From positions 2,418,001 to 2,482,000 of the forward strand of contig NZ_CP025113.1 in assembly GCF_002831585.1 (NCBI RefSeq): a DNA stretch of 64,000 nucleotides. Direction: 5' to 3'. The notes beneath the pieces are model-generated. The model saw only the letters and a list, made by a program, of their open reading frames with translations, had not been told where the DNA came from and made no database searches. Positions 27,358 to 45,888 of this stretch are shown in pieces. The DNA comes from Bradyrhizobium sp. SK17 (GTDB lineage Bacteria; Pseudomonadota; Alphaproteobacteria; Rhizobiales; Xanthobacteraceae). The stretch's first letter is position 1, and each line of letters opens with the position of its first letter. A program made the translations under genes and the position numbers.

Positions 27358-27364
27358 AAGCGGC

Positions 27365-27412
27365 AAATTTCTTCGGCGGCAAATGTCGGCCGCTGGTTTT
27401 CCGGCCCGTCTT
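27365..27412 (+). promoter_or_regulatory. ECF42-type promoter P-rib
   Basis: TGTCGG at 27384-27389, 17-nt spacer, CGTCTT at 27407-27412; A/T-rich AAATTTCTTC starts at 27365, 19 nt before TGTCGG. Same layout as five other sites in the window. It overlaps the region just after the TetR stop and drives the RibD/DHFR-like gene 36 nt downstream. Confidence 0.7.
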
Positions 27413-27447
27413 CCGTAAGTTGCCCTCACTCACGGAAGCAGAAAATC

Positions 27448-28094
27448 ATGGGAAAAGTCAGGACTTCGGCGTTTTCGATCTCGATCGACGGATTTGGCGC
27501 GGCGCCGCGTCAGAGCCGCGAAAATCCATTCGGCGAAGGCGGCATGGTGTTGCCCGGCTGGTTCCTCCAGACCCGGACGTTTCGCCAGACCTTCGGCCAG
27601 GAGGGGGCGGCACCGGGCTCGACGACGAGATCGCGCGCAGGGCGATGGAAAATATCGGCGCCTGGATTCTGGGCCGTAACATGTTCGGTCCGATCCGCGG
27701 GCCATGGCCGGATCATGCCTGGAAGGGCTGGTGGGGCCCCAATCCGCCGTATCACACGCCGACCTTTGTGCTGACCCATCACGCCCGGCCCGACATCGAA
27801 ATGGAAGGCGGCACCACGTTCCATTTCGTGACCGATGGCATTCATGCCGCGCTCGATCGCGCGCGTGCGGTTGCCGGCGACAAGGACATCCGGGTCGGCG
27901 GCGGCGTCTCGCTGGTGCGCCAGTTCCTGCAAGCGCGCCTGCTCGACGAATTGCAACTGGCGCTGTCGCCGGTGTTGCTCGGCGCCGGCGAGAATCTGTT
28001 CGCCGGCCTCGATCTGCCCGCGCTCGGCTACGCTGTCGTCTCACACGTCGCGAGCCCGAACGCCACCCACGTCACCTTCGCGCGCACATCGTAG
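27448..28094 (+). pseudogene. RibD C-terminal/dihydrofolate reductase-like protein, frameshifted
   Basis: The first part (MGKVRTSAFSISIDGFGAAP ... RTFRQTFGQEG) is in one frame and the rest (GGGTGLDDEIARRAMENIGAWILGRNMFGPIRGPW ... SLVRQFLQARLLDELQLALSPVLLGAGENLFAGLDL) in another. The break is at the five-G run 27603-27607; one extra G would restore a ~216-aa RibD_C/DHFR-like reductase. Such proteins (YyaP/YwjB type) bind NADPH; substrates are mostly unknown. The flanking sequence shows no other decay, so a recent mutation, a homopolymer sequencing error or slippage are all possible. Preceded by an ECF42-type promoter. Confidence 0.82.
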
Positions 28095-28130
28095 TTCGCG
28101 CACGGCTGCGTTAGCGGCCGAAATTGGCCG

Positions 28131-28178
28131 TTGACGCGGCGCGTGTTCGGGCGTACTTAACCCAAAGGTTATTTAACC
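28131..28178 (+). promoter_or_regulatory. sigma70-type promoter with tandem ArsR operator
   Basis: TTGACG (28131-28136), 17-nt spacer, TACTTA (28154-28159). Overlapping the -10 are alternating palindromic half-sites TAACC-CAAA-GGTTA-TT-TAACC (28158-28178). The ArsR start follows at 28193, so autorepression by promoter occlusion is the natural reading. Confidence 0.65.
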
Positions 28179-28192
28179 GATGAGCTAAGTAC

Positions 28193-28594
28193 ATGCCGCT
28201 GGACCCCCTCAGTTCGACCTTCGCGGCGCTGGCCGATCCGACCCGGCGCGCGATCCTGGCGCGGCTCGCGCTCGGGGAGACCTCGGTGATGGAGCTGGCG
28301 AAGCCGTTCGACATGAGCCTGCCGGCGATCTCCAAGCATCTGAAGGTGCTGGAGCATGCCGGGCTGATCTCGCGCGGGCGCGAGGCGCAGTGGCGGCCGT
28401 GCCGGATCGCGCCCGACTCGTTCAAGCAGGTCGACGGCTGGCTCGGGAATTTCCGCCGCTTCTGGGACGAGAGCTTCAACCGCCTCGACGGATTGCTCGA
28501 GGAGATGAAGGCGGAGGAGGCCGCGAAGGCCCCGCCGCGCAAGCGTAAAACCAGTGTAACCAAGGAGAAGCAACGTGGACGCACGCGTGGATAA
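28193..28594 (+). CDS. ArsR-family regulator (SRPBCC-linked type)
   Basis: 133 aa. Winged helix: LSSTFAALADPTRRAILARLALGETSVMELAKPFDMSLPAISKHLKVLEHAGLISRGREAQWRPCRIAP. No CxC metal motif is visible; this group usually sits beside an AHSA1/SRPBCC protein and is not a metal sensor. The C-terminus is Lys/Arg-rich (APPRKRKTSVTKEKQRGRTRG) and overlaps the next gene by 20 nt, so translation is coupled. The two probably form one autoregulated operon. Confidence 0.92.
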   Translation: MPLDPLSSTFAALADPTRRAILARLALGETSVMELAKPFDMSLPAISKHLKVLEHAGLISRGREAQWRPCRIAPDSFKQVDGWLGNFRRFWDESFNRLDGLLEEMKAEEAAKAPPRKRKTSVTKEKQRGRTRG

Positions 28595-29066
28595 GACGCT
28601 GAAGATCACCACCCCGTCGGATTTCGAATTCGCGATGACGCGCCAGTTCGACGCGCCGCGGCGCTTCGTGTTCGATGCAATGACCAGGCCGGAATATCTG
28701 GTGCGCTGGCTTGGCTGCGAGCAGCTCACGATGCCGGTGTGCGAAGTCGATTTGCGGGTCGGCGGCGCCTATCGGTTCGTGTTCCGCTCGTCCGAGGGCA
28801 TCGAGCATGAACTCACCGGCACCTATCGCGAGGTGGTGCGGCCGGAACGGCTGGCGTTCGGCGAAACCTTCTCGATGCCGGGCTTCACCAGCGAGGAGTA
28901 TCTCGTCATCTCGACCTTCGTCGAGGCCGGCGGCACCACCACGCTGACCACCACGATCCGCCATCCCACCAAGGAGGCGCGTGACGGCCATCTCAACTCC
29001 GGCATCGACAAGGGCGTCGCGCCGGCCTACGACCGGCTCGCCGAGGTGGTTGCCGAGATGGGCTGA
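28575..29066 (+). CDS. SRPBCC/AHSA1-family protein
   Basis: 163 aa, GTG start inside the end of arsR. AHSA1-like START-fold: FEFAMTRQFDAPRRFVFDAMTRPEYLVRWLGCEQLTMPVCEVDLRVGGAYRFVFRSSEG, ELTGTYREVVRPERLAFGETF, and a C-terminal GHLNSGIDKGVAPAYDRLAEVV helix. Members bind hydrophobic ligands or act as stress-linked proteins; no catalytic residue can be assigned. Its partner is the preceding ArsR gene. Confidence 0.9.
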   Translation: MDARVDKTLKITTPSDFEFAMTRQFDAPRRFVFDAMTRPEYLVRWLGCEQLTMPVCEVDLRVGGAYRFVFRSSEGIEHELTGTYREVVRPERLAFGETFSMPGFTSEEYLVISTFVEAGGTTTLTTTIRHPTKEARDGHLNSGIDKGVAPAYDRLAEVVAEMG

Positions 29067-29077
29067 GACCGTGGCCT

Positions 29078-29215
29078 CTCCACCTGTCGTCCCGGCGAAG
29101 GCAGGGACCCATAACCCCGGCTTGTCGTTGCTGCGGCAAGCCGGGGCCCCAGCTTTCTTGATCACGAACGTCGGTGGTTATGGGTCCGGGTTGCGCTTCG
29201 CTTGCCCGCGACGAC
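29078..29215. repeat. palindromic intergenic repeat, family C, copy 2
   Basis: TGTCGTCCCGGCGAAGGCAG ... TTGCCCGCGACGACA outer arms, with GGGACCCATAACC / GGTTATGGGTCC inside (~29105-29190). Lies between the convergent SRPBCC and 2-hydroxyacid dehydrogenase genes. Confidence 0.85.
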
Positions 29216-29241
29216 ATTGCCTTGACACGCCCCGTTAGGCC

Positions 29242-30207
29242 CTAATACCCCCGGTTGCGGTCGACCACGTTCTCCAACTCACCACCTTGCTCGAAGCGCG
29301 CGATCTGCTGCGCGACGTATTTCGAGATCTCGTCGGCATCGGTGTCGGCGGCGTTGTGCGGGGTCAGCACCACCTTCGGGTGGCTCCAGAACGGGCTGTC
29401 CTGCGGCAACGGTTCGGTCTCGTAGACGTCGAGCGAGGCGGCGCCCAGCGTGCCGTCGTCGAGCGCGCGCAGGATGTCGGCCTCGTTCTGCAAGCCGCCG
29501 CGGCCGGCATTGATGATCACGGGCGCGCCGAGCGGGCCGTTGCGGTTCAGCTTCGCGAACGCGTCGCGATTCAGCACATGGCGGGTGTCCGGCGTCAGCG
29601 GCAGCAGGCAGACCAGGATGTTGGTCTCGCGCAGGAATGCGTCGAGCCCCTCGCTGCCGTGGAAGCAGGCGATGCCGTCGATCCGCTTCTCGCTGCGGCT
29701 CCAGCCGACGACGCGGAAGCCGAGCGCGCGGAGCGCCTGCGCCGAGGCCGCGCCGAGCGTGCCGAGCCCCATCACGCCGACGGTGATGGCGTTGGCCGCC
29801 CATTGATAGTCCGGCGCCCAGCGCTTCTGCCGCTGCGACTCGCGCAGATAAAGCTCCTGGCGGTGATGCATCAGCACATGCAGCACGACATATTCGGTCA
29901 TGCGGCTGGTGAGGTCGGACACCGAGACCCGCACCAGCGGCACGTCGGGCAGCGAGCGGTCGGCCATCAGCGCGTCGACGCCGGCGCCGAGGTTGAAGAT
30001 GACGCGCAGGTTCTTGAACGCCGCGAGTTCGCCCGGCTTCGGCTTCCACACCGCGGCATAGTGCACCTCGGCGGGGTCCAGCGCCGGGTCCGGCAGCAGC
30101 ACCACGGGTCGGTCCGGGCAGACCGTGTCGAACCGCGCCTTCCAGCGCGCCGACGACCAGTTTTCCGAGCCGCCATTGATCAGCAGCGCGAGCGCGCCCT
30201 TACCCAT
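29242..30207 (-). CDS. D-2-hydroxyacid dehydrogenase, glyoxylate/hydroxypyruvate reductase A-like
   Basis: 321 aa. NAD(P)-binding VGVMGLGTLGAASAQALRALGFRVVGWSRSEK (~143-174), catalytic-region Arg in INAGRGGLQNEADILRAL, Glu in LDVYETEPLPQDSPFW, His in VVLTPHNAADT. The short N-terminal domain and NPNAA/HNAAD pattern fit GhrA-type enzymes, reducing glyoxylate to glycolate or hydroxypyruvate to glycerate. Arg in WSRSEK after the Rossmann Asp position suggests NADPH. Start ATG 30207 has GGAGG upstream. Confidence 0.9.
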   Translation of the reverse strand: MGKGALALLINGGSENWSSARWKARFDTVCPDRPVVLLPDPALDPAEVHYAAVWKPKPGELAAFKNLRVIFNLGAGVDALMADRSLPDVPLVRVSVSDLTSRMTEYVVLHVLMHHRQELYLRESQRQKRWAPDYQWAANAITVGVMGLGTLGAASAQALRALGFRVVGWSRSEKRIDGIACFHGSEGLDAFLRETNILVCLLPLTPDTRHVLNRDAFAKLNRNGPLGAPVIINAGRGGLQNEADILRALDDGTLGAASLDVYETEPLPQDSPFWSHPKVVLTPHNAADTDADEISKYVAQQIARFEQGGELENVVDRNRGY

Positions 30208-30296
30208 CCAGATACCTCCAAAATCAATGTGATATAAGTCACAGAGCGGGCCTGGCCCGCGCCCTAACCTCCTGCCATCAACAGGGGAGAACTTCC

Positions 30297-30575
30297 ATGC
30301 GCAAACTGATCCTGATCTCGGCTTTCGTGCTTGCCTCCGCCGTCACCGCCGATGCCGGCCAGAACCGCGGCCTCGTGCTCGCGGCGGCGGATGCGCCAGC
30401 GCAAACGCAAGCAGCCGTTGCACCGGCACAGGCCGAGGCACAGCCGGCCCCCTCGCAGGTTCAGGCGTCGACGCCCCGGCGGTCGCGTCCGGTGCAGAAC
30501 AGCGGCGTCCGCCACCGCGAGAGCGACGAAGCCAAGGCGCGCCGGATTGCCGCCCGCTACGGCGTCTACTGGTAG
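30297..30575 (+). CDS. small secreted hypothetical protein
   Basis: 92 aa with a clear signal peptide MRKLILISAFVLASAVTADA and strong Shine-Dalgarno GGGGAGA. The mature part is Ala/Gln/Pro-rich (APAQTQAAVAPAQAEAQPAP) and ends in a conserved-looking DEAKARRIAARYGVYW. Not recognised beyond that; likely periplasmic. Confidence 0.7.
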   Translation: MRKLILISAFVLASAVTADAGQNRGLVLAAADAPAQTQAAVAPAQAEAQPAPSQVQASTPRRSRPVQNSGVRHRESDEAKARRIAARYGVYW

Positions 30576-30612
30576 CAATTGCCGTCGCGGCGATGGACCT
30601 GACTCGCCGCTC

Positions 30613-30660
30613 AAAAATCTTTCGCGCCGCCTGTCGGCAGCGGGCATAATCGTTCGTTCT
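30613..30660 (+). promoter_or_regulatory. ECF42-type promoter P-sig (autoregulatory)
   Basis: TGTCGG at 30632-30637, 17-nt spacer, CGTTCT at 30655-30660; A/T block AAAAATCTTT begins at 30613. The preceding CTCAAAA..TCTT is also found before the DoxX promoter. Drives YCII + sigma, start codon 26 nt downstream. Confidence 0.72.
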
Positions 30661-30685
30661 TGCAATGAACGGAGATGCCTTTTCG

Positions 30686-31054
30686 ATGCTGTACGCGATC
30701 CTCTGCTATCATGACGAAGACCTGGTCGGTTCCTGGAGCAAGGAACACGACGCCTCGGTCATGCAGAAACTGTCCGTCGTGCAGGACAAGCTCGCCAGGG
30801 AGGGCAAGCTCGGACCGGTGGCCCGGCTGCTGCCGACCACCGCCGCGACCACGCTGCGCAAGGAAAACCCGCCGCTGGTGCTCGACGGCCCGTTCGCCGA
30901 AACCAAGGAACAATTGCTAGGCTTCTACCTGGTCGATGCCAAGAACCTCGACGAGGTGCTCGACATCGCGCGCGACCTCGGCGAGGCCAATCCCGGCGGC
31001 ACCTATGAGATCCGCCCGGTCGGCCACTTCACGCCGGGGAGCGCAAAGCCGTGA
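30686..31054 (+). CDS. YCII/DGPF-domain protein, partner of the ECF42 sigma factor
   Basis: 122 aa from ATG 30686 (MLYAILCYHDEDLVGSW); a Met at 30665 is an alternative. Contains the name-giving DGPF: VLDGPFAETKEQLLGFYLVDAKNLDEVLDIARDL near residues 74-107, and a final EIRPVGHF. YCII-fold proteins are small dimeric alpha+beta proteins; DGPF members are the genetic partners of ECF42 sigma factors and their biochemical role is not established. Stop overlaps the sigma start as GTGA. Confidence 0.92.
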   Translation: MLYAILCYHDEDLVGSWSKEHDASVMQKLSVVQDKLAREGKLGPVARLLPTTAATTLRKENPPLVLDGPFAETKEQLLGFYLVDAKNLDEVLDIARDLGEANPGGTYEIRPVGHFTPGSAKP

Positions 31055-32328
31055 GCGTGACCGATACCGCCTGGATCGACGCCGCGCTGACATCGGCGCG
31101 TCCCCAGGCGGTCGGCGCGCTGCTGCGCTACTTCCGCAATCTCGATACCGCCGAGGAGGCCTTCCAGAACGCCTGCTTGCGCGCGCTGAAGAGCTGGCCG
31201 CAGAACGGCCCGCCGCGCGATCCCGCGGCGTGGCTGATCATGGTCGGCCGCAATGTCGCGATCGACGACATCAGGCGCAGCAAGAAGCAGGAGGCGCTGC
31301 CCGACGACGACCGGTCGATCTCCGATCTCGACGACGCCGAGGAGGAGATCGCCGAACGGCTCGACGGCTCGCACTACCGCGACGACATCCTGCGGCTGTT
31401 GTTCATCTGCTGCCACAAGGACCTGCCGGCGACGCAGCAGATCGCGCTGGCGCTGCGCATCGTCTCCGGCCTCACGGTCAAGCAGATCGCGCGCGCCTTC
31501 CTGGTCTCGGAAGCCGCGATGGAGCAGCGCATCACCCGGGCCAAGGCGCGCGTCGCCGATGCCAACGTGCCGTTCGAGACGCCGGGCGCGGTCGAGCGCA
31601 GCGAGCGGCTCGCCTCGGTCGCCGCGATGATCTACCTGATCTTCAACGAGGGTTATTCGGCGAGCGGCGACACCGCGGAGATCCGCTCGCCGCTGTGCGA
31701 GGAGGCGATCAGGCTCGCCCGCCTGCTGCTGCGGCTGTTCCAGAGCGAGCCGGAAATCATGGGGCTGACCGCGCTGCTCTTGTTGCAGCACGCCCGCGCC
31801 GCCGCGCGGTTCGATGCGGACGGCCAGGTGATCCTGCTCGACGACCAGGACCGCAGCCTGTGGAATCAGAAGCTGATCGCGGAGGGCCTCGCCCTGATCG
31901 ACAAGGCGATGCGCCATCGCCAGAGCGGACCCTATCAGGTGCAGGCCGCGATCGCAGCGCTGCATGCCCGCGCGGAGAAGCCCGAGGATACCGACTGGAC
32001 CCAGATCGATCTGCTCTATGGCGCGCTCGAGCTCATGCAGCCGTCGCCGGTGATCACGCTCAACCGGGCGGTTGCGGTCTCCAAGGTGCAGGGGCCCGAG
32101 GCCGCGCTCGAGATGATCGAGCCGCTGGCGCCGCGGCTCGCGAACTATTTCCATTATTTCGGCGTGCGCGGCGCCTTCCTGATGCAACTCGGCCGCAACG
32201 AGGAGGCCCGTGTCGCCTTCGACCGCGCCATCGCACTCGCCAACACCACGGCCGAGGCCGCCCATATCCGCATGCACATCGACCGCCTGATGCGCGACAG
32301 CCAGCCGCGCAATGCGAAGGCGAAGTAG
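31051..32328 (+). CDS. ECF42-type RNA polymerase sigma factor with C-terminal TPR-like extension
   Basis: 425 aa, more than twice a normal ECF sigma. GTG start overlapping YCII. Region 2: VGALLRYFRNLDTAEEAFQNACLRALKSWPQNGPPRDPAAWLIMVGRNVAIDDIRRSK (~24-85). Region 4: IVSGLTVKQIARAFLVSEAAMEQRITRAKARV (~138-170). From ~190 the DUF6596/TPR-like part: SVAAMIYLIFNEGYSAS, LARLLLRLFQSEPEIMGLTALLLLQHAR, GPYQVQAAIAALHA, NRAVAVSKVQGPEAALEMIEPLA, YFHYFGVRGAFLMQLGRNEEARVAFDRAIAL. No anti-sigma gene nearby; in this group the extension is needed for activity. Candidate reader of all six TGTCGG-N17-CGTY promoters in this window. Confidence 0.93.
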   Translation: MSVTDTAWIDAALTSARPQAVGALLRYFRNLDTAEEAFQNACLRALKSWPQNGPPRDPAAWLIMVGRNVAIDDIRRSKKQEALPDDDRSISDLDDAEEEIAERLDGSHYRDDILRLLFICCHKDLPATQQIALALRIVSGLTVKQIARAFLVSEAAMEQRITRAKARVADANVPFETPGAVERSERLASVAAMIYLIFNEGYSASGDTAEIRSPLCEEAIRLARLLLRLFQSEPEIMGLTALLLLQHARAAARFDADGQVILLDDQDRSLWNQKLIAEGLALIDKAMRHRQSGPYQVQAAIAALHARAEKPEDTDWTQIDLLYGALELMQPSPVITLNRAVAVSKVQGPEAALEMIEPLAPRLANYFHYFGVRGAFLMQLGRNEEARVAFDRAIALANTTAEAAHIRMHIDRLMRDSQPRNAKAK

Positions 32329-32374
32329 CGGCGCGCAGCTTCTGTCTTTCAAGCCCGGGCCGAGAGACTTCCCG

Positions 32375-32560
32375 CGTGGCACCCCTCTCCCTAACCCTCC
32401 CCCGCAAGGGGGGAGGGAACCCTTCCGCCGGTGCTTCTCTCACACCCGCGCAGGGCCATCGCCAATCAATTGCGTGAGGTGAGCACGCTGGTCAGGCACC
32501 CTCCCCCTTGCGGGGGAGGGTGGGGAGAGGGGTAAGCCCCGGGCGAGATCATCGACGAGG
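32375..32560. repeat. composite palindromic repeat, family A, copy 2
   Basis: Here the CCCCTCTCCCTAACCCTCC half comes first and the GTGAGGTGAGCACGC half second, the reverse order of the 21767 copy, as expected if the two halves invert as a unit. Fills the gap after the sigma gene and may terminate it. Confidence 0.85.
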
Positions 32561-32594
32561 CCCCGGTAGTCTGGTCACGGCATTCGCCACTCTC

Positions 32595-32641
32595 AAAATT
32601 CTTCCTGCGATCTGTCGGCCGCGCATCGCCCCGTTCGTCTT
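32595..32641 (+). promoter_or_regulatory. ECF42-type promoter P-dox
   Basis: TGTCGG at 32613-32618, 17-nt spacer, CGTCTT at 32636-32641; A/T block AAAATTCTTC starts at 32595 (18 nt upstream). Drives DoxX-SRPBCC-VOC; DoxX start 36 nt downstream. Confidence 0.72.
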
Positions 32642-32677
32642 GATGACAGAGCATCACCAAGCGTTACGGAGCCTGCC

Positions 32678-33088
32678 ATGCCGACGATCGTCGACACCGA
32701 AGTCTCGAAGTCCGCCCGGATCACCGGCCGCGTCATCAGCGGCGTGGTCGTCCTCTTCCTGCTGTTCGACGGCGCGATCAAGCTGGTGCCGTTGCCGGTC
32801 GTCACCGAGACCTTGGACAGGATGGGCTGGGGCGCGAGCGATACGCTGGCGCGCAGCCTCGGCATCATCACCATCGTCTGCACGCTGCTCTACTCGGTGC
32901 CGCCGACCTCGATCCTCGGTGCCATCCTGCTCACCGGCTATCTCGGCGGCGCCATCGCATCGCATGTGCGGATCGACAGCCCGCTGTTCTCCCACACGCT
33001 GTTCGGGCTTTATCTCGGCCTGATGGTGTGGGGCGGGCTCTATCTGCGCGACGGCAATCTGCGTGCGCTGCTGCCGTTCCGCCGCTAA
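32678..33088 (+). CDS. DoxX-like four-helix membrane protein
   Basis: 136 aa. Four hydrophobic spans (ITGRVISGVVVLFLLFDGAIKL, ARSLGIITIVCTLLYSVPPTS, LGAILLTGYLGGAIASHV, TLFGLYLGLMVWGGLYL) with LFDGAIKLVP and GYLGGAIASHVR as in the DoxX-like family. Inner membrane; some DoxX relatives take part in thiol/redox stress handling, but no activity can be assigned here. First gene after an ECF42-type promoter. Confidence 0.85.
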   Translation: MPTIVDTEVSKSARITGRVISGVVVLFLLFDGAIKLVPLPVVTETLDRMGWGASDTLARSLGIITIVCTLLYSVPPTSILGAILLTGYLGGAIASHVRIDSPLFSHTLFGLYLGLMVWGGLYLRDGNLRALLPFRR

Positions 33089-33153
33089 GCGTCTGGTTTG
33101 ACGCGCTCGCTTGAAAACGCTTTCGTTGTTCGATTCATCTTCCGGAGACCATC

Positions 33154-33690
33154 ATGTTCGAGACCATTGCCATCATCGCCATCATCCTTGCGATCGCGAT
33201 TGCCGTAATTCTCATCCTCGCGGCGACCAAGCCGAGCACGTTCCGCGTCACGCGTGCGACCAGCATCAACGCGCCGGCCGAACGGATCTTTGGATTGATC
33301 GACGATTTCCGTCAGTGGACAGTCTGGTCGCCCTACGAGAACCGGGACCCGGACATGAGGCGCATCTACAGCGGCACCGAGCGCGGGCAGGGCGCGGCCT
33401 ATGCCTGGGAGGGCAACAAGAATGTCGGCGCCGGCCGCATGGAAATCCTGCAATCCGCCGCGCCGTCGAAGATCGTCATCAAGCTGGATTTCCTGAAGCC
33501 GTTCGAGGGCCACAACACCGCGGAGTTCACAATGCTGCCGCAGGGAGATGCGACCAGCGTCACATGGACCATGTATGGTCCGGCCGTCTTCATGTCGAAG
33601 GTGATGCAGGTGTTCATGAACCTGGACCACATGATCGGCCGGGATTTCGAGGTCGGTCTCGCCAATCTGAAGAAGCTGACCGAAAAATAA
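33154..33690 (+). CDS. membrane-anchored SRPBCC (START-fold) protein
   Basis: 178 aa. One N-terminal span MFETIAIIAIILAIAIAVIL, then polyketide-cyclase-like SRPBCC domain: TFRVTRATSINAPAERIFGLIDDFRQWTVWSPYENRDPDM..., GQGAAYAWEGNKNVGAGRMEI and a C-terminal helix LDHMIGRDFEVGLANLKKLTE. GGAGA upstream. Second gene of the P-dox unit (65-nt gap). Ligand unknown. Confidence 0.85.
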   Translation: MFETIAIIAIILAIAIAVILILAATKPSTFRVTRATSINAPAERIFGLIDDFRQWTVWSPYENRDPDMRRIYSGTERGQGAAYAWEGNKNVGAGRMEILQSAAPSKIVIKLDFLKPFEGHNTAEFTMLPQGDATSVTWTMYGPAVFMSKVMQVFMNLDHMIGRDFEVGLANLKKLTEK

Positions 33691-33767
33691 CGCGCTTTCG
33701 AGTGAAGTGGTTATCGGTTCGCGTCAAGAAAACGTGTCAAGCCAGAATCTGTTCAAGGGAGCAAGCG

Positions 33768-34178
33768 ATGCAGGTCAACCCCTATCTCTCCTACGATGGC
33801 AATTGCGGCGCCGCGCTGAAATTCTACGAAAAGGTTCTCGGCGCGCGGATCGAGGAAACCTTCCCCTACGGCGAGGGCAATGCCGAAATGCAGACCCCGC
33901 CGGGCTGGAAGGACAAGGTCATGCATGCCCGCCTCACGATCGACGGCGAGATCATCATGGCCTCGGATGCCCCGCCCGGCCATTTCCAGAAGCCGCAGGG
34001 CTTTCACGTCGCGTTGCAGGTCGAGGATCCCACCGAGGCCGAGCGCCGCTTCACGGCGCTGTCCGAAGGCGGCGCGGTCACCATGCCGTTCGGCAAGACC
34101 TTCTTCTCGAACGGCTTCGGCATGTGCGTCGATCAGTTCGGCATCCCCTGGATGGTGAACTGCCCGGCGCAGATGTGA
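33768..34178 (+). CDS. VOC-family (PhnB/glyoxalase-like) protein
   Basis: 136 aa from ATG 33768 (AAGGGAGC upstream). PhnB-type: NPYLSYDGNCGAALKFYEKVLGARIEETFPYGEGN, VMHARLTIDGEIIMASDAPP, GFHVALQVEDPTEAERRFTALSEGGAVTMPFGKTFFSNGFGMCVDQFGIPWMVN. The C-terminal WMVN is the usual end. Reaction unknown; PhnB-like proteins often neighbour YCII and SRPBCC genes, as here. Its 3' end overlaps a small opposite-strand ORF. Confidence 0.9.
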   Translation: MQVNPYLSYDGNCGAALKFYEKVLGARIEETFPYGEGNAEMQTPPGWKDKVMHARLTIDGEIIMASDAPPGHFQKPQGFHVALQVEDPTEAERRFTALSEGGAVTMPFGKTFFSNGFGMCVDQFGIPWMVNCPAQM

Positions 34179-34402: not shown

Positions 34403-34424
34403 GAGTTCCTCGCCTCGTTTTCCG

Positions 34425-38626: not shown

Positions 38627-38658
38627 GCGATTCCCTCGTCGAGCGGGCCGCAAGCTAA

Positions 38659-38847: not shown

Positions 38848-38865
38848 CAATTTCGAGGCCTCACC

Positions 38866-39618: not shown

Positions 39619-39625
39619 TCGAGGA

Positions 39626-40192
39626 ATGGACCGCGAAACGTATCTCTGGCTGATCCGCCACGCGCCGGTCGATGGTCCGCGCGGTGTGATCCACGCACCC
39701 GATGCGCCGGCCGACCTTGATGATGCCGCCACATTCGCCGCGTTGCAGGCGCGGCTGCCGAGCGGCGCTCGCACAATTTGCAGCCCGGCGCGGCGGACCC
39801 GTGAGACCGCGGCGCGGCTTGGCCTCACGGCAACCGAAGACGATGCCTTCCGCGAACAGGATTTTGGCACCTGGACCGGCCGTCGTCACAGCGAGATCGA
39901 GCAAGAACTCGGCGCGGAAGCCTATCGCGCCTTCTGGCAGTCGCCGGGGATCAACCGGCCGCCGGGTGGCGAGAGCTTCGCGGACCAGATTGCGCGCGCG
40001 CGAGTTGGGCTTGCGCGTCTGCCTCCCGGCGATGTCGTGCTCGTCGTGCATTCCGGCACCATCCGCGCGATCCTCGCGATCGCGCTCGAACTGGCGCCGG
40101 AGCATGCGCTGCGCTTCGTGATCGGTCCGCTGTCGCTGACGCGGGTCGATCGGTTGGGGAAGGCGTGGCGCGTGGTGGCGGTGAATGGCTGA
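39626..40192 (+). CDS. cobC: histidine phosphatase, CobC/alpha-ribazole phosphatase-like
   Basis: 188 aa. RHG-type motif LWLIRHAPVDGPRG (His as phospho-acceptor), SPARRTRETAARLG, EQDFGTWTGRRHSEIEQ and VVHSGTIRAILAIAL. Second gene after cobS with GAGGA just before the ATG, so it likely removes the phosphate of alpha-ribazole-5'-P. The first motif is RHA rather than RHG, seen in some CobC proteins. Convergent with the SDR gene. Confidence 0.85.
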   Translation: MDRETYLWLIRHAPVDGPRGVIHAPDAPADLDDAATFAALQARLPSGARTICSPARRTRETAARLGLTATEDDAFREQDFGTWTGRRHSEIEQELGAEAYRAFWQSPGINRPPGGESFADQIARARVGLARLPPGDVVLVVHSGTIRAILAIALELAPEHALRFVIGPLSLTRVDRLGKAWRVVAVNG

Positions 40193-40216
40193 TGAATCCC
40201 GTTGCGCCGCGGGGGC

Positions 40217-41017
40217 TCACCCGTTCCGCCGTTCGCCGCGCAGCGTCGGCAGGCCGATGCCAGCGGCATCGAAGCCGCCGTCGACGGCGAGGATCTGTCC
40301 GGTGATGTAGCTCGCGCGATCCGAGCACAGGAAGAAGATCGCCTCAGCCAGCTCCTCCTCCAGCCCATAGCGGTTGAGCGGGATCGCGTCGTGATAGTCG
40401 GCGCGGATCTCCGGCGTATGCACCGCCTTGGCCATCGCGGTCTCGACCGGCCCGGGCGCCACGCCGTTGACGCGGATGCCGAGCGAGGCGAGTTCGACCG
40501 CAAGCTGCTTGGTGAGATGCGCGAGGCCGGCCTTGCTGGTGCCGTAGGCCGAGCGCAGCGTCGAGGCGCGCACCGCCGAGATCGAGGTGATGTTGACGAT
40601 CGCACCGCCGCCATGCTCGCGCATCAGGGGCGCGGCCGCCTTGGTGCACAGGAACGGGCCGGTCAGATTGACCGCCATGATCCGGCTCCAGTCGGCGTCC
40701 GAGGTCTCCAGCACCGGCGCGAACACCGCCGTGCCGGCGTTGTTGACCAGCGCGTCGAGCCGGCCGAAGCGGTTTGTGATCGTCGCCATCGCCTTGGTCA
40801 CGCCATCGGCGTCGGACACGTCGCAGGTCAGCGCCAGCGTCGTGTCGGGTTGCCTCAACGCAGCGACCGCGGCATTCAGCAACTCCCCCTCGATGTCGAG
40901 CAGCGCGACGCGCCAGCCGTCGGCGAGGAAGCGTTTCGCCGCGGCCAGCCCGATGCCGCGCGCGGCGCCGGTCACGAGTGCGACTTTTTGTGCGGAGGAG
41001 GTCATCGGGTGGTCCAT
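40217..41017 (-). CDS. short-chain dehydrogenase/reductase (FabG-like)
   Basis: 266 aa. Cofactor motif VTGAARGIGLAAAKRFLADG, structural NNAGTAVF, catalytic Ser in NITSISAVRA and YGTSKAGLAHLTKQLA (Y-x-x-x-K), DGGFDAAGIGLPTL end. Alternative start ATG 41005. Substrate unknown; not an obvious part of cobalamin synthesis. Confidence 0.88.
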   Translation of the reverse strand: MDHPMTSSAQKVALVTGAARGIGLAAAKRFLADGWRVALLDIEGELLNAAVAALRQPDTTLALTCDVSDADGVTKAMATITNRFGRLDALVNNAGTAVFAPVLETSDADWSRIMAVNLTGPFLCTKAAAPLMREHGGGAIVNITSISAVRASTLRSAYGTSKAGLAHLTKQLAVELASLGIRVNGVAPGPVETAMAKAVHTPEIRADYHDAIPLNRYGLEEELAEAIFFLCSDRASYITGQILAVDGGFDAAGIGLPTLRGERRNG

Positions 41018-41092
41018 CGGTTTCGGGCAAGAAGCCCCGACCGTCTGCGACCTTTATGCAGAGGTGTCAACAACCGGCAGCATGCTATTTTC

Positions 41093-41168
41093 CCGTCATC
41101 CTGAGGAGCGCGTAGCGCGTCTCGAAGGATGCGCGGCGACCAGCCCGGGCCGCTCATCCTTCGAGGAT
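41093..41168. repeat. palindromic intergenic repeat, family B, copy 2
   Basis: CGTCATCCTGAGGAGCGCGT and inner CTCGAAGGAT / ATCCTTCGAGG arms as in the 3062 copy; the 3' outer arm is degenerate. Confidence 0.8.
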
Positions 41169-41179
41169 CGCACCACAGC

Positions 41180-42850
41180 CTACGCCGCGAGTTCGGCGGA
41201 GGCGCGCTGCATGTTGGTCGACATGTCCTGCGTCACGATGCTCTGCTCCTCGACCGCGGCGGCGGTGGAGGTGATGTATTCGTTGACGCCGGCAATCGCG
41301 GCCTTGATCTCGGAGAGCGAGCTCGCCACCGCCGCGGCGATGGAGTTCAGCGCGTCGATTTCCGAGGAGATCGTGTCGGTCGCCTGCTTGGCCTGGTTGG
41401 CGAGGCTCTTCACCTCGGAGGCAACCACCGCGAAGCCGCGGCCGGCCTCGCCCGCGCGAGCCGATTCGATCGTGGCGTTGAGCGCGAGCAGGTTGATCTG
41501 CCCGGTGATGCTCGAGATCATCTCGACGATGCCGCTCATCGCCTGCGCCGCCGCATTGAGCCTCTGTGCCTCGCCGTCGGCGGCCTCGACGCGGCCGGTG
41601 GCGACCGCGGCATTCTGCTTCGACTTGGTCATGGTCTCCGAGATCTCGCGGATCGAGGCGCTCATCTCCTCGCTGCCGGCGGCCACCGCCTCGATCAGGC
41701 CGCGCGCGCTGTCGGCCTTCTTGCGGCCGATCGCCTGCGCGGTGATGTCGGTGGCGTATTTCACCACCTTGTAGGGCTTGCCGTTGAGATCGAGGATCGG
41801 GTTGTAGGAGGCCTGGATCCAGATCTCGCGGCCGCCCTTGGCGATGCGTTTGTATTCGGCCGCCTGGAACTCGCCGCGGTTCAGCGCGCCCCAGAATTCG
41901 CGGTACGCCGACGAACTCGCCTCGACCGGCTCGACGAACATGCTGTGATGCCGGCCCTGGATCTCGGCCAGCGTATAGCCCATCGCGGCAAGGAAGTTCG
42001 GGTTCGCATTGCGGATCGTGCCGTCCATGTTGAACTCGATTACCGCCTGCGACTTGCCGATCGCGTCGATCTGACCGTCATTGTCGGCGGCCTTGAGCTT
42101 CTGCTGGGTGACGTCGGTCGCGAACTTGACGACCTTGAACGGCTTGCCGCGTTCGTCGAGGATCGGGTTGTAGCTGGCGAGGATCCAGATCTCGCGGCCG
42201 CCCTTGGCGTGCCGCTTGAATTCGCCGGACTCGAACTCGCCGCGGTTCAGCCGTGCCCAGAACTCGCGATAGCCTGCGCTGTCGCGATCGGCCGGCGGCA
42301 TGAACATGCTGTGATGCTTGCCTTGAATCTCGGCGAGCGCGTAGCCCATCGCGCCGAGGAAGTTCTCGTTGGCGGTGACGATGGTGCCGTCCATGTTGAA
42401 CTCGATCACCGCTTGCGCGCGGTTGATGGCGGCGATCTTGCCGGAATCTTCCATGCTGTGGATCTTCTGCGCGGTGATGTCGGTGGCGAATTTGATGACG
42501 CCGACCGGCTTGCCGTTCTTGTCCGTGATCGGGTTGTAGGAGGCCTGGATCCAGATCTCGCGGCCGCCCTTGGCGATGCGCTTGTATTGCGCGGCCTGGT
42601 GTTCGCCGCGATTGAGGCTCGCCCAGAACGCGCGATAATCGTGGCTGTCGCGCATGGCAGGATCGACGAACATGCTGTGGTGCTTGCCCCTGATCTCGTC
42701 GAGCGCGTAGCCCATCGCGTTCAGGAAGTTCTCGTTGGCGGTGACGATGGTGCCGTCGAGCTTGAACTCGATCACCGCCTGCGACTTGCCGATCGCTGCG
42801 GCTTGCGCCAACGCATTCTCGATGTTGGCCTTGTTGCTGAACGTAAACAT
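41180..42850 (-). CDS. cytosolic triple-PAS chemoreceptor (MCP)
   Basis: 556 aa from ATG 42850 (GGAG upstream); the frame before it is open but has no family features. Three nearly identical PAS units of ~122 aa (1-122, 123-244, 245-366) each read [13 protein letters not shown].(T/R)AN.NFL.AMGY.L.EI.G(K/R)HHSMF..P and ...GGREIWI.ASYNPI.D..GKP..V.KFATD(I/V)T.QK. The signalling helices follow ([44 protein letters not shown], ~440-485). No membrane spans. The PAS units resemble those of Aer-like receptors (heme or flavin possible; no cofactor residue seen). Preceded by the 500-nt region 42851-43354. Confidence 0.92.
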
Positions 42851-43082
42851 CAGGGCTCCGTGAAGGTTCAAAAGAAACGGGATGGGAAAAGTCGATCGCG
42901 GCAACTCACGGAAAGGTTGCAGCGAGCCGTTTAGCATCGGTAAAGCCTGCGCGTCGCGTGCGCGTGGCACGAACTGCATAACGCGCTCGACGGCGATTCC
43001 ATCTATCTCAACTTGCGAAGCAATTTTTTTGATATGCACGCTATCATTCATAGTCGGATGCGACGTTCACCGTAGTCATACG

Positions 43083-43108
43083 GACGAAAATCTCTGAGAA
43101 TTTTCGTC
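43083..43108. promoter_or_regulatory. perfect inverted repeat GACGAAAAT ... ATTTTCGTC
   Basis: Nine-bp arms at 43083-43091 and 43100-43108, 8-nt loop, in a gene-free region between divergent units. No U-run after either side, so operator or cruciform rather than terminator. Confidence 0.4.
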
Positions 43109-43277
43109 TGATGCGGATGATCTCGAGCGCGCGTATTCACCGAGTTTGATAGGTCCATTACCAAGATTGATATCGCATCCGATGTCGTGGATCGATCACT
43201 CATTCGATTCGTGTGATCGACGAAGCTGGATTGCGCTGCGACGGCGACGTGAGATCGACCTGCTCCGTACAAGTCGG

Positions 43278-43325
43278 AAATATTTGTCGTGCGTGATGTC
43301 GGCGGTGCGGTCGTCGGTTCGTCCT
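43278..43325 (+). promoter_or_regulatory. ECF42-type promoter P-gst
   Basis: TGTCGG at 43297-43302, 17-nt spacer, CGTCCT at 43320-43325; A/T block AAATATTTG starts at 43278. GST start codon 30 nt downstream. Confidence 0.7.
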
Positions 43326-43354
43326 CCGGCCACTGTTTCGCCCATGGAGTTCTG

Positions 43355-44008
43355 ATGTCGCTCACCTTGCATTACCATCCGCTGTCCTCGTTCTGCTGGA
43401 AGGCGCTGGTCGCGCTTTACGAGAACGGCGCGCCGTTCACCCCGAACATGGTCAATCTCGGCGATCCCGCCGAGCGCGCGGCGTTGCTCGCGCTGTGGCC
43501 GATCGGACGCTTTCCCGTGCTCCGCGACGAGACGCGCGGCGAGACCGTGCCCGAATCGAGCATCGTCATCGAATATCTCGACCGGCATTATCCCGGCACC
43601 GTCAGGCTGCTTCCGGAGGACCCGGACCTCGCGCTACGGACCCGGCTGCGCGACCGCTTCCTCGATCTCTATGTCCATCTGCCGGTGCAGAAGATCGTCG
43701 GCGACCGGCTGCGGCCTGCGGGCAGCAAGGATCCGCATGGCGTCGCCGAGGCACGGACGCAGCTTCGCAGCTCCTATGCGATTCTCGACCGGCAGCTGGT
43801 GCATGGCGGCTGGATGATGGGCGAGCAGTTTTCGCTGGCGGATTGTGCCGCCGCGCCGGCGCTGTTCTACGGCAACAAGGTCGAGCCGATCGGGGAGGAC
43901 CATCGGCATCTGGCGGCCTATCTTGAACGGCTGACGGCGCGGCCGTCCTTTGCGCGCGTCCTCGAGGCGGCCGAGCCCTATTTCGGCATGTTCCCGAAGG
44001 AAAACTGA
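43355..44008 (+). CDS. glutathione S-transferase
   Basis: 217 aa from ATG 43355 (GGAG upstream). N-domain LTLHYHPLSSFCWKALVALYENGAPFTPNMVNLGD, RFPVLRD and ETVPESSIVIEYLDRHYPG (glutathione-gamma-Glu contact), helical C-domain with WMMGEQFSLADCAAAPALFY. SSFCW puts Ser/Cys at the usual activating position. Likely detoxifies electrophiles. Driven by its own ECF42-type promoter and followed by three hairpins. Confidence 0.92.
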   Translation: MSLTLHYHPLSSFCWKALVALYENGAPFTPNMVNLGDPAERAALLALWPIGRFPVLRDETRGETVPESSIVIEYLDRHYPGTVRLLPEDPDLALRTRLRDRFLDLYVHLPVQKIVGDRLRPAGSKDPHGVAEARTQLRSSYAILDRQLVHGGWMMGEQFSLADCAAAPALFYGNKVEPIGEDHRHLAAYLERLTARPSFARVLEAAEPYFGMFPKEN

Positions 44009-44057
44009 CCTGACAAGGAACTGAAGTCAGGTCGGGCTGAAAAATATTTTCAGCCCG
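44008..44057. terminator. two stacked hairpins after the GST gene
   Basis: ACCTGAC/GTCAGGT (44008-44014 / 44026-44032) and directly next the perfect 11-bp dyad CGGGCTGAAAA / TTTTCAGCCCG (44033-44043 / 44047-44057). No U-run follows the second. Its A/T core is also the upstream element of promoter P-ntf, so the same bases seem to serve two jobs. Confidence 0.6.
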
Positions 44058-44087
44058 ATGTCGCGTTCGGGCCGTTCCATTCGTCAT
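44040..44087 (+). promoter_or_regulatory. ECF42-type promoter P-ntf
   Basis: TGTCGC at 44059-44064, 17-nt spacer, CGTCAT at 44082-44087; A/T block AAAAATATTT starts at 44040 (19 nt upstream). It is the only one of the six with C instead of G at the sixth -35 base. Confidence 0.6.
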
Positions 44088-44097
44088 CTGCCTGAGG

Positions 44098-44135
44098 CCC
44101 GGGTTCTGGAGCGCTGGTCGCTCCAGTGGCCCGGG
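44098..44135 (+). other. strong hairpin in the leader of the NTF2-like gene
   Basis: CCCGGG-TT-CTGGAGCG-CTGGT-CGCTCCAG-TGG-CCCGGG: inner 8-bp stem 44106-44113/44119-44126 flanked by CCCGGG palindromes. Lies just after promoter P-ntf and 19 nt before the start codon, so it would be in the 5' leader RNA. Confidence 0.6.
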
Positions 44136-44154
44136 TGACCTGTGTGGAGACGAC

Positions 44155-44526
44155 ATGGCTGCAACTGGCAACAGGGCGGAGATCATCCGCAAGCTCTTCG
44201 CCGCCTATCTCGCCAATGATCGAGCGAGCGTCGAGGCTGCGTTCGCGGAGGATTTTCGCTTCTCGACGCCCTATGGCGAGAACATCGACAAGTCCCGCTA
44301 TTTCGCCGAGTGCTGGCGCGACAGCGACTGGATCGGCCGCCACGAGATCGAGCGCATCATGGTCGACGGCCCCGAGGCTTTCGTCACCTATCGCTGCGTT
44401 GCCCGCGACGGCAAGAGCTTCCGCAACACCGAGTTCTTCGCGTTCGACGGCGACAAGGTGTCGCGCATCGACGTCTATTTCGGCCCGTCGCATCAGGACG
44501 GGGCGCTCGTCAGACAGGAGCGATAG
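44155..44526 (+). CDS. SnoaL/NTF2-like protein
   Basis: 123 aa. NTF2-fold: AEIIRKLFAAYLANDRASVEAAFAEDFRFSTPYGENIDKSRYFAECWRDSDW, VTYRCVARDGKSFRNTEFFAFDGDKVSRIDVYFG. Small cone-shaped fold used by isomerases and many proteins of unknown role. Followed by the serine hydrolase 80 nt downstream, probably the same transcript. Confidence 0.85.
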   Translation: MAATGNRAEIIRKLFAAYLANDRASVEAAFAEDFRFSTPYGENIDKSRYFAECWRDSDWIGRHEIERIMVDGPEAFVTYRCVARDGKSFRNTEFFAFDGDKVSRIDVYFGPSHQDGALVRQER

Positions 44527-44606
44527 GGCATTCGTCGCGATCGCGATCGCGGTCGCGCGACCGCCTGATCGTCAGCGTCTGCGGGCCCCAACAAGGAAGC
44601 TTGGAT

Positions 44607-45815
44607 ATGTCTGTACTAAGCGAGAACGGCAATCTGTCGCGGCCGCGGCTCGGACGTATGCACGAAGTGCTGGCGCACCATGTTGGTGCGGGCGACGTGC
44701 CGGGCGTCGTGGCGCTGGTCAGCCGCCGCGGCGAGATCCATGTCGATGTCCTCGGCCGCATGGCGCTCGACGGCCCGCCGATGCAGCGTGATACCATCTT
44801 CCGGATCGCATCGATGACCAAGCCGGTGACGGCCGTCGCCGCGATGATCCTGGTCGAGGAATGCCGGCTCAGGCTCGACGATCCCATCGACCGTTGGTTG
44901 CCCGAACTCGCCGACCGCAAGGTGCTGCGCACGATCGAATCCGGGATCGACGACACGGTGCCGGCGCAGCGCGCCATCACGTTGCGCGACCTGCTCACCT
45001 TCCGGCTCGGGCTCGGCATGATCCCGGCGTTTCCGGCGCGCCATCCGATCCAGATCGCGATTGCGGATGCCGGCTTCGCGCCCGGTCCGGTGTTTCCGAC
45101 GTTTCCGCCGGACGAGTTGCTGCGCCGTTACGGTACGCTGCCGCTGGCCTATCAGCCGGGCGAACGCTGGCTCTACAACACGGGGTCGGAGATCCTCGGC
45201 GTGCTGATCGCGCGGGTCGCCGGAATGTCGTTCGCTGGCTTCCTGCAAGAGCGCATCTTCACGCCGCTCGGCATGACCGACACCGCCTTCCACGTGCCGC
45301 CGGACAAGCTGAAGCGGCTCGCGACCTGCTATACGCGCGATGCCGCGACCGGCAAACTGAAGGTGTTCGACGAGCCGGCGAGCGGCAAATATGCCGCGCC
45401 GCCGGTGTTCGAAAATGGCGGCGCCGGGCTGGTGTCGACCGCCGACGACTTCAATGCGTTTGCCCAGATGATGCTCAATGGCGGGCGGCTCGGCACCGAG
45501 CGCATCCTGTCGCGGCCTGCCGTGGAGCTGATGACCTCGGACCAGCTCGCGCTGTCCGACAAGCAGGGCTCGGAATTTCTGCTCGGTGCCGGGCGCGGCT
45601 GGGGGTTCGGGCTGTCGGTGGTCACCGCGCGCGACGATCTCTGTCAGGTGCCCGGCCGCTACGGCTGGGACGGCGGCTACGGCACCTCCTGGTATTCCGA
45701 CCCGCGCGAGGAAATGACCGGGATCCTGCTGACCCAGCGCATGCTGGACTCGCCGCAGCCGCCTCAGGTGTTTTCAGATTTCTGGACGCTCGCCTATCAG
45801 GCGATCGATGACTAG
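44607..45815 (+). CDS. serine hydrolase, beta-lactamase/esterase family (class C-like)
   Basis: 402 aa from ATG 44607 (AAGGAAG upstream). Catalytic S-x-x-K as S69-M-T-K72 in IFRIASMTKPVTAVAAMIL, YNTGSEILGVLIARVAGMSF as the Tyr motif region, and a late YGWDGGYGTSWYSDP in place of the KTG box (G-G/Y-G as in EstB-type esterases). No signal peptide, so cytosolic. Acts on ester or amide substrates not identifiable here. Confidence 0.88.
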   Translation: MSVLSENGNLSRPRLGRMHEVLAHHVGAGDVPGVVALVSRRGEIHVDVLGRMALDGPPMQRDTIFRIASMTKPVTAVAAMILVEECRLRLDDPIDRWLPELADRKVLRTIESGIDDTVPAQRAITLRDLLTFRLGLGMIPAFPARHPIQIAIADAGFAPGPVFPTFPPDELLRRYGTLPLAYQPGERWLYNTGSEILGVLIARVAGMSFAGFLQERIFTPLGMTDTAFHVPPDKLKRLATCYTRDAATGKLKVFDEPASGKYAAPPVFENGGAGLVSTADDFNAFAQMMLNGGRLGTERILSRPAVELMTSDQLALSDKQGSEFLLGAGRGWGFGLSVVTARDDLCQVPGRYGWDGGYGTSWYSDPREEMTGILLTQRMLDSPQPPQVFSDFWTLAYQAIDD

Positions 45816-45841
45816 CGCGAGGTATGCGTCAATGACTTCAG

Positions 45842-45888
45842 AAATAATTTCCATCACCGTGTCGGTGGCGCACAAGCTCCATCGTCTT
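45842..45888 (+). promoter_or_regulatory. ECF42-type promoter P-yci
   Basis: TGTCGG at 45860-45865, 17-nt spacer, CGTCTT at 45883-45888; A/T block AAATAATTTC starts at 45842 (18 nt upstream). First YCII start 51 nt downstream. Confidence 0.72.

What the first reader, a model, noticed from the sequence alone, without database searches (positions are those of the whole stretch)
27365..45888. Six promoters with one architecture: a local ECF42 sigma regulon
TGTCG(G/C)-N17-CGTY is found at exact 17-nt spacing upstream of six transcription units: 27384 (RibD-like), 30632 (YCII-sigma), 32613 (DoxX-SRPBCC-VOC), 43297 (GST), 44059 (NTF2-hydrolase), 45860 (three YCII). All are within 75-100 nt of a start codon. 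One ECF42-type sigma gene sits in the set and is itself under such a promoter. The ECF42 group is known (from memory of published Streptomyces work) to use TGTCG-type -35 and CG(A/T)C-type -10 elements and to sit with DGPF/YCII genes. That one sigma factor reads all six is inference. The target list (GST, VOC, SRPBCC, hydrolase, NTF2, DoxX) looks like a chemical-stress response.
Basis: partly seen in the sequence, partly recalled or inferred. Interest (0 to 1): 0.88.

Follow-up and report, generated by a model that had tools for sequence, protein, structure and literature searches.

The report
ECF42 sigma-factor promoter set in Bradyrhizobium
Six genes or operons beside a stress-type sigma factor in a Bradyrhizobium genome carry the same switch sequence, very probably read by that sigma factor; the switch type is already known from a related bacterium, but here it has an extra, position-locked A/T stretch that is also seen in other alphaproteobacteria.

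Summary
The six sites are real: exact TGTCG(G/C)-N17-CGTY, 6 against 1.35 expected. The bare pattern is not specific: 138 hits genome-wide, reversed control 86. With an A/T tract 9 nt upstream, exact hits fall to 7: these six and one before a distant VOC-type gene. A matrix trained on other Bradyrhizobium genomes ranks exactly these six first in the window, 25-51 bits against 5.6 for the next. Promoters recur before orthologous genes in the genus. Predicted starts fall on purines in 6 of 6, at the offset mapped for an S. meliloti RpoE10 (ECF42) promoter, so the architecture is known. 'One sigma' needs care: the genome has three ECF42 paralogs, whose own promoters differ in the last -35 base and the -10; 10 of 10 examined relatives of each of the other two keep their type. 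Not found described in my searches: an A/T tract at about -53 to -45, present at 38 of 54 ECF42 autopromoters of other alphaproteobacteria, not established outside that class.

The parts
27365..27410 (+). Promoter 1: A/T tract, TGTCGG (27384), CGTC (27407); predicted transcription start 27419; before the RibD_C-type gene
   Evidence: (25.3 bits)
27448..28094 (+). RibD_C / dihydrofolate-reductase-like gene, reading frame broken near 27600 in this genome
   Evidence: (PF01872 in ORF 27342-28094)
30613..30658 (+). Promoter 2 (sigma autopromoter): A/T tract, TGTCGG (30632), CGTT; predicted transcription start 30667
   Evidence: (45.6 bits); motif and tract in 32 of 32 same-genus loci
30686..31054 (+). 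YCII-domain gene, partner of the sigma gene
   Evidence: PF03795 in ORF 30665-31054; start revised
31051..32328 (+). ECF42-type sigma factor: sigma2, sigma4, DUF6596 and long C-terminal extension
   Evidence: one of three in the genome; 95 of 98 genus genomes at E<=1e-150
32594..32639 (+). Promoter 3: A/T tract, TGTCGG (32613), CGTC; predicted transcription start 32648
   Evidence: (45.5 bits)
32678..33088 (+). DoxX_2 family membrane protein
   Evidence: PF13564
33154..33690 (+). SRPBCC / Polyketide_cyc2 protein
   Evidence: PF10604
33777..34178 (+). VOC / glyoxalase-type protein, domain part only (true start not settled)
   Evidence: PF00903 at residues 223-348 of ORF 33111-34178
43278..43323 (+). 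Promoter 4: A/T tract, TGTCGG (43297), CGTC; predicted transcription start 43332
   Evidence: (30.2 bits)
43355..44008 (+). Glutathione S-transferase
   Evidence: ORF 43289-44008; start
44040..44085 (+). Promoter 5: A/T tract, TGTCGC (44059), CGTC; predicted transcription start 44094
   Evidence: (43.4 bits)
44155..44526 (+). SnoaL_2 / NTF2-like protein
   Evidence: PF12680
44310..45815 (+). Open frame of a serine hydrolase of the beta-lactamase fold (domain at residues 120-479 of this ORF; true start later)
   Evidence: PF00144
45841..45886 (+). Promoter 6: A/T tract, TGTCGG (45860), CGTC; predicted transcription start 45895
   Evidence: (51.3 bits); motif and tract in 27 of 27 same-genus loci in which the gene was found
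45939..47383 (+). Three YCII-domain genes (45939-46355, 46352-46936, 47015-47383)
   Evidence: PF03795; the third is just below the curated cut-off (22.2 against 24 bits)

Best explanation
This is the regulon of one ECF42-type sigma factor of Bradyrhizobium, probably autoregulated. The sigma gene, behind and probably co-transcribed with a YCII gene, makes RNA polymerase read TGTCGG (-35 to -30) and CGTY (-12 to -9) at exactly 17 bp. The promoters drive its own operon and five neighbouring units (RibD-like; DoxX-SRPBCC-VOC; GST; SnoaL-hydrolase; three YCII), plus probably one distant VOC-type gene. An A/T tract at about -53 to -45 most likely binds the alpha-subunit C-terminal domains as an UP element. 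Shown: the sites, their conservation with gene order, the score with a matrix from other genomes, the conserved +1 purine, and a published mapped start at the same offset. Inferred: that this sigma rather than its two paralogs reads them, the co-transcription, the UP-element role, and a response to reactive or toxic small molecules.
For: Six exact sites against 1.35 expected. A matrix from 111 sites of other genomes ranks exactly these six first (25-51 bits; next 5.6; best of 20 windows shuffled in 2-base blocks 9.2). The first 30 of the 132 other core-pattern sites score at most 1.4 bits outside the core, against 8.4-34.4 for the six. In 32 same-genus loci the N17 motif occurs 118 times on the sigma strand and 4 times on the other; 106 of 118 against 0 of 4 carry the A/T tract; it precedes the YCII-sigma operon in 32 of 32 and the YCII cluster in 27 of 27. 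The tract pattern occurs 216 times in 98 genus genomes, this one included, reversed control 3. S. meliloti RpoE10: same promoter form, two operons induced on overexpression, one start mapped by two methods at the same offset. +1 purine in 6 of 6 here and 98% of the genus sites. The G-type promoter tracks the sigma clade on a tree.
Against: No transcript data for this organism. The bare pattern is common in the genome (138 hits), and the tract pattern was written from these six sites. Two further ECF42 sigmas are present, with promoters differing in only one or two core bases; 8 of 118 genus sites carry the A typical of paralog 2, so cross-reading is possible. Two sites (27384, 43297) score clearly lower, and the RibD unit with the motif was seen in only 2 of the 32 same-genus loci. 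In S. meliloti the YCII-sigma operon was not induced by RpoE10, and its 5'-RACE start overlaps the motif instead of lying downstream of it, so autoregulation is not demonstrated even there. Presence of sigma and presence of the pattern do not separate: three genus genomes have the sigma without an exact pattern hit (G376, G377, G404), and two have a hit without a full-length sigma match (G353, G009).
Confidence: 0.85

Rival explanations
1. The six promoters are real ECF42 promoters but are shared by two or all three ECF42 paralogs, so there is a network rather than one sigma and one regulon.
For: Three ECF42 genes. All three autopromoters have A/T tract, TGTCG and N17. One window site is TGTCGC and 8 of 118 genus sites carry TGTCGA. 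On the tree the T type is not clustered (3 changes for 3 rows) and the nearest row to the third paralog has A.
Against: The last -35 base and the -10 differ consistently between paralogs in the ten relatives of each that were examined. A tract pattern for the two other types hits only the two paralog autopromoters in 8.29 Mb, reversed control 0. On a tree of 57 sigmas the G type forms one 21-row group plus one outlier.
Confidence: 0.3
2. The A/T tract is not an UP element but the site of a separate regulator or of an AT-binding silencer such as a MucR/Ros-type protein (named from recall), and the boxes alone make the promoter.
For: Position is locked and the tract has A-to-T polarity. The 8 nt next to the -35 box are GC-rich (28% A/T), so it is not a classical proximal UP subsite.
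Against: It goes with ECF42 promoters in many alphaproteobacterial families (38 of 54 sites at 70% A/T or more, flank 4 of 54), as a polymerase contact would. GGAAC-N17-CGTT sites of the same genome lack it (1 of 30), a weak control. A synthetic A/T-rich UP element has been used to make ECF promoters from GC-rich genomes work in E. coli (passage).
Confidence: 0.25
3. Chance or coding-sequence artefact: a GC-rich motif common in this genome.
For: 138 genome-wide hits of the bare pattern against 86 for the reversed control. Other spacings also give high or strand-biased counts in the conserved loci: 60 against 10 at N13, 30 against 51 at N15.
Against: The tract, the T at offset 28, the +1 purine, gene-start positions and genus-wide conservation.
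Confidence: 0.02

Closest known systems
Sinorhizobium meliloti RpoE10 (ECF42) regulon, PMC6180224
   Same: TGTCGG-N17-CGTC; YCII-sigma gene pair; targets with a hydrophobic-ligand-binding and glyoxalase-like domains; one start mapped by two methods 35 nt after the first T. Seen as passages with Table 1 and its footnote. The Ensifer locus L207 (sigma 73% identical) carries promoters of the same sequence type behind a T-rich tract.
   Different: The paper lists one ECF42 sigma and two operons induced two-fold or more. This genome has three ECF42s and six neighbouring promoters plus a distant one. The L207 target is of the AHSA1 family and a SnoaL-glyoxalase fusion, while the window's SRPBCC is Polyketide_cyc2: same kind of fold, orthology not shown. 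The passages read do not mention an A/T tract; the logo figure is not held.
Streptomyces venezuelae ECF42 sigmas and Pseudomonas putida ECF-10
   Same: Sigma with TPR-rich C-terminal extension and a conserved YCII-domain neighbour (review passages)
   Different: Original papers not held, so their promoter details are not compared. ECF42 loci of other proteobacterial classes rarely showed this autopromoter in the 1 kb upstream (7 of 39).
UP elements
   Same: A/T-rich stretch upstream of the -35 box; a synthetic one was used to activate ECF promoters from GC-rich genomes (PMC3817407 passage); proposed as an extra ECF promoter feature (PMC10880074 passage)
   Different: Here it is natural, about 9 nt long, with A-to-T polarity and a fixed place at about -53 to -45

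Membership tests
ECF42 sigma factor group | sigma2 and sigma4 domains without sigma3 | tested here: met
   PF04542 and PF08281, no sigma3 model
ECF42 sigma factor group | long C-terminal extension (DUF6596; described as TPR-rich) | tested here: met
   PF20239 119.9 bits; no TPR model was called, so the TPR fold itself was not shown. That DUF6596 marks ECF42 is recalled.
ECF42 sigma factor group | YCII-domain gene next to the sigma gene | tested here: met
   PF03795 at 30665-31054; found in 32 of 32 same-genus loci
ECF42 sigma factor group | no anti-sigma gene nearby | tested here: inconclusive
   The neighbouring ORFs scanned gave no anti-sigma family, but not every ORF was scanned
ECF42 sigma factor group | placement by the group's own classifier | not testable with these tools
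   ECF group models are not among the libraries; NCBIfam gives only the ECF superfamily above its cut-off among the 25 of 37 families shown
ECF42 promoter | TGTCG-type -35 and CG(T/A)C -10 at fixed spacing | tested here: met
   S. meliloti precedent
ECF42 promoter | dependence of transcription on the sigma factor | not testable with these tools
   needs a mutant and transcripts
UP element | A/T-rich sequence upstream of -35 | tested here: met
UP element | contact by the alpha C-terminal domain and stimulation of transcription | not testable with these tools
   biochemical test needed

The most novel reading that the evidence does not exclude
Alphaproteobacterial ECF42 promoters are three-part: a position-locked AAAWWWTTT tract at about -53 to -45 is an integral element contacted by polymerase alpha subunits. 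In Bradyrhizobium the last -35 base (G, A or T) with the third -10 base (T or A) forms a code that keeps the three ECF42 paralogs of one cell from reading one another's promoters.
Probability: 0.4. Interest if true: 0.6.

Novelty: new member of a known kind. Interest (0 to 1): 0.45.

Why it matters
The signal of ECF42 sigma factors is described as unresolved in the papers I read in passages. The Bradyrhizobium ECF study I read in passages (PMC3420878, 2012) counts four of the 17 ECF sigmas of B. japonicum as characterised and names EcfQ, EcfF, EcfG and EcfS. This locus gives a defined target list, exact predicted start sites and a natural set of three paralogs with distinguishable promoters, so sigma-promoter specificity and the role of the upstream A/T tract can be tested directly. 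The target list (VOC, GST, SRPBCC, RibD-like, SnoaL, YCII) suggests small reactive molecules as the stress to try first.

Tried and rejected
Bare consensus as evidence: rejected, since 138 hits genome-wide are only 1.6 times the reversed control of 86.

Other spellings of the tract: up to two mismatches give 25 hits against 9 in the reversed control; of the 17 two-mismatch hits I looked at four. WWWW at a fixed place finds only four of the six sites, the distant VOC site and one more (C1:6529411, not followed), reversed control 2.

Sigma/promoter co-occurrence across the genus as a test: uninformative. 95 of 98 genomes have the sigma at the strict cut-off and 94 of 98 have an exact pattern hit; the exceptions do not line up (G376, G377, G404 have the sigma but no exact hit; G353 has a hit without the sigma at that cut-off; G009 has hits and the sigma in two pieces; G409, 75% complete, has neither).

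Extending the tract and autopromoter beyond Alphaproteobacteria: not supported. 7 of 39 loci from other classes had the N17 site within 1 kb upstream of the sigma gene; tract mean 0.60 against flank 0.39, p = 0.22.

GGAAC-N17-CGTT as a control promoter class: weak, because its hit count (55) is hardly above its reversed control (52), so most sites may not be promoters.

Literature: the Streptomyces and P. putida ECF42 papers were not held. Searches on ECF42, YCII with sigma, ECF-10, UP element with extracytoplasmic function, DGPF with sigma, Bradyrhizobium with ECF sigma, and DUF6596 gave no paper describing a Bradyrhizobium ECF42 regulon or a conserved A/T tract at ECF42 promoters, going by the listings and by the passages opened of ten papers. 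Other listed papers were seen as listings only. The held library is only part of the literature.

Rows dropped before counts; ten relatives of each paralog were chosen from the listing by identity to the window's sigma, not by a tree; only loci with a site (54 of 76; some of the other 22 are cut by contig ends); for L125 the second of two sites was used, for L249 the first; those 54 plus the three own sigmas; training kept 111 of 118 sites, those with at least 5 of 10 A/T in the tract and enough flank, so the tract's weight in the matrix is somewhat selected; background was the first 30 of 132 other core hits, those fetched, which do not include the distant VOC site; 32 same-genus loci; other-family loci fetched with them were left out; 39 loci, 19 of the 30 returned plus 20 fetched.
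Full report
What is in the sequence. The pattern TGTCGS-N17-CGTY occurs six times in the window, all on the + strand at the reported positions, against 1.35 expected; 0 of 100 shuffles reach six. Each site lies 54-96 nt before a plausible start codon. The genes behind them: a RibD_C-type gene; a YCII gene with an ECF sigma gene carrying sigma2, sigma4 and DUF6596; DoxX, SRPBCC and VOC proteins; a GST; a SnoaL-like protein with a beta-lactamase-fold hydrolase; and three YCII proteins. The stretch between 34425 and 43051 holds no match to the pattern.

Is the bare pattern enough? No. In the 8.29-Mb genome it has 138 hits, and 86 when read backwards. The distinguishing feature is an A/T tract about 9 nt upstream of TGTCG. 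A pattern with the tract, written from the six sites and so circular for them, has seven exact hits in the genome: the six and C1:5861454 on the minus strand. That seventh was not used to write the pattern; it lies just before the start codon of a PF06983 gene, a VOC-superfamily type by recall. The only one-mismatch hit lies before a second ECF42 gene. Of 17 two-mismatch hits I looked at four: C1:5463178 lies before another RibD_C gene, C1:2831778 and C1:3856066 lie inside long open frames, C1:1432890 was not resolved. In all, up to two mismatches give 25 hits against 9 for the reversed control.

Test with a matrix from other genomes. I built a weight matrix only from sites in other genomes of the genus (111 of 118 kept) and scanned the window on both strands. 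The six sites take ranks 1 to 6 with 25.3 to 51.3 bits; rank 7 has 5.6, and the best of 20 windows shuffled in 2-base blocks has 9.2. Outside the nine core bases the six score 8.4 to 34.4 bits, while 30 of the 132 other core-pattern sites of this genome score at most 1.4, mean -31. The distant VOC site scores 33.8, the second ECF42's autopromoter 26.1, the C1:5463178 site 23.2 and the third ECF42's autopromoter 17.0 in all. Orthologous promoters are in the training set, so this tests conservation as well as motif form.

Conservation. The genus is Bradyrhizobium by the named matches (28 of 29 stretches; the other is Ensifer). In 32 same-genus loci the N17 motif occurs 118 times on the sigma strand and 4 times on the other, and 106 of 118 against 0 of 4 carry the tract. 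It precedes the YCII-sigma operon in 32 of 32, the first gene of the YCII cluster in 27 of 27, DoxX in 13 of 15, GST in 9 of 12, SnoaL in 10 of 17 (only 4 with the tract) and SRPBCC in 16 of 31; it precedes TetR1, TetR2 and VOC in 0 of 26, 0 of 27 and 0 of 25. The RibD unit with the motif was seen in 2 of the 32 (L091, L092). Other spacings are not rare in these conserved stretches (60 at N13 on the sigma strand, 51 at N15 on the other), so strand bias alone would be weak evidence. Across 98 genus genomes, this one included, the tract pattern occurs 216 times, reversed control 3; this genome, from which the pattern was written, has the most, seven.

Transcription start. In the genus alignment position 35 after the first T is a purine in 98% and position 28 is T in 96%; all six window sites have both. 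In S. meliloti the start of SMc01149, found both by RNA-seq and by 5'-RACE, lies at exactly position 35 (PMC6180224 Table 1 and its footnote). This places TGTCGG at -35 to -30, CGTY at -12 to -9 and the tract at about -53 to -45.

Which sigma? The genome has three ECF42 genes, 42-47% identical to one another. Their autopromoters share tract, TGTCG and N17 but differ: TGTCGG/CGTY for the window's sigma, TGTCGA/CGTC for the one at 751 kb, TGTCGT/CGAC for the one at 7237 kb. Ten relatives of each of the latter two, chosen by identity, keep their type, 10 of 10 and 10 of 10. A tract pattern for the latter two types hits exactly those two autopromoters in the whole genome, reversed control 0. On a tree of 57 alphaproteobacterial ECF42 sigmas, the G type needs 2 changes (shuffled mean 17.7) and the window's sigma sits in a supported group of 21 G-type rows; the A type needs 5, and the T type is not clustered, 3 changes for 3 rows (quick tree). 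So the window's sigma is the best candidate reader of its neighbours. But 8 of 118 sites in the orthologous clusters carry the A type and one window site is TGTCGC, so cross-reading is not excluded.

The A/T tract. In 76 ECF42 loci from outside the genus, 54 have TGTCG-N17-CG(A/T)C within 1 kb upstream of the sigma gene; the N17 count is 56, against 15 for the ten other spacings from 12 to 22 together. In those 54 the ten positions from -19 to -10 before TGTCG average 72% A/T against 38% at -40 to -31 (paired Wilcoxon p = 1.5e-8); 38 of 54 reach 70%, against 4 of 54 for the flank, and the tract runs from A to T. Some loci lack it, for example L139, L141, L145 and L151. GGAAC-N17-CGTT sites in this genome do not show it, 1 of 30, though that is a weak control. 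In other proteobacterial classes the evidence is insufficient. An UP element is the simplest reading; a synthetic UP element has been used at ECF promoters and such elements are proposed as an extra ECF promoter feature.

Comparison with what is known. RpoE10 of S. meliloti is an ECF42 sigma beside a YCII gene. Its overexpression raises six genes, among them two operons coding for a hydrophobic-ligand-binding protein, glyoxalase-like proteins and a protein without predicted function, with TGTCGG-N17-CGTC promoters. The Ensifer locus L207 has promoters of the same sequence type with a T-rich tract and a sigma 73% identical to the window's; its target genes are AHSA1 and SnoaL-glyoxalase proteins, related in kind to the window's but not shown to be orthologous. 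The kind is therefore known; this is a new, larger member in another genus. The paper also reports that the YCII-sigma operon itself was not induced by RpoE10 and that its mapped start overlaps the motif, so autoregulation is inference. Control of activity by the C-terminal extension and perhaps the YCII partner is only proposed in the passages read.

Verdict. Observation confirmed; interpretation supported with the caveat of paralogs; new member of a known kind. The position-locked tract and the paralog-specific bases are the parts worth an experiment.

Noticed in passing
27448-28094: The RibD_C-type gene is frame-broken near 27600 in this genome but intact in relatives L091 and L092; it could be a real loss or a sequencing error in a G-rich stretch.
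   Followed up: partly
47501-48202: A TetR-family gene follows the three-YCII operon; a match to it was found in 27 of 32 same-genus loci. It may be co-transcribed and could be a second input.
   Followed up: no
26698-27357: Another TetR-family gene directly before promoter 1; a match was found in 26 of 32 same-genus loci, never behind the motif.
   Followed up: no
L122 (genome G009): The orthologous sigma gene lies in two adjacent pieces although three N17 sites around it are kept.
   Followed up: no
41180-43051: A methyl-accepting chemotaxis protein with several PAS domains lies inside the regulon stretch on the other strand, without the motif.
   Followed up: no
L038 and L237 (C1:753175 and C1:7238312 of the window's genome): Autopromoters of the two other ECF42 paralogs; no further tract-bearing sites of their types in the genome.
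   Followed up: yes
C1:6529411 of the window's genome (L243): A further core-pattern site with four A/T bases at the tract's place; the gene behind it was not examined.
   Followed up: no
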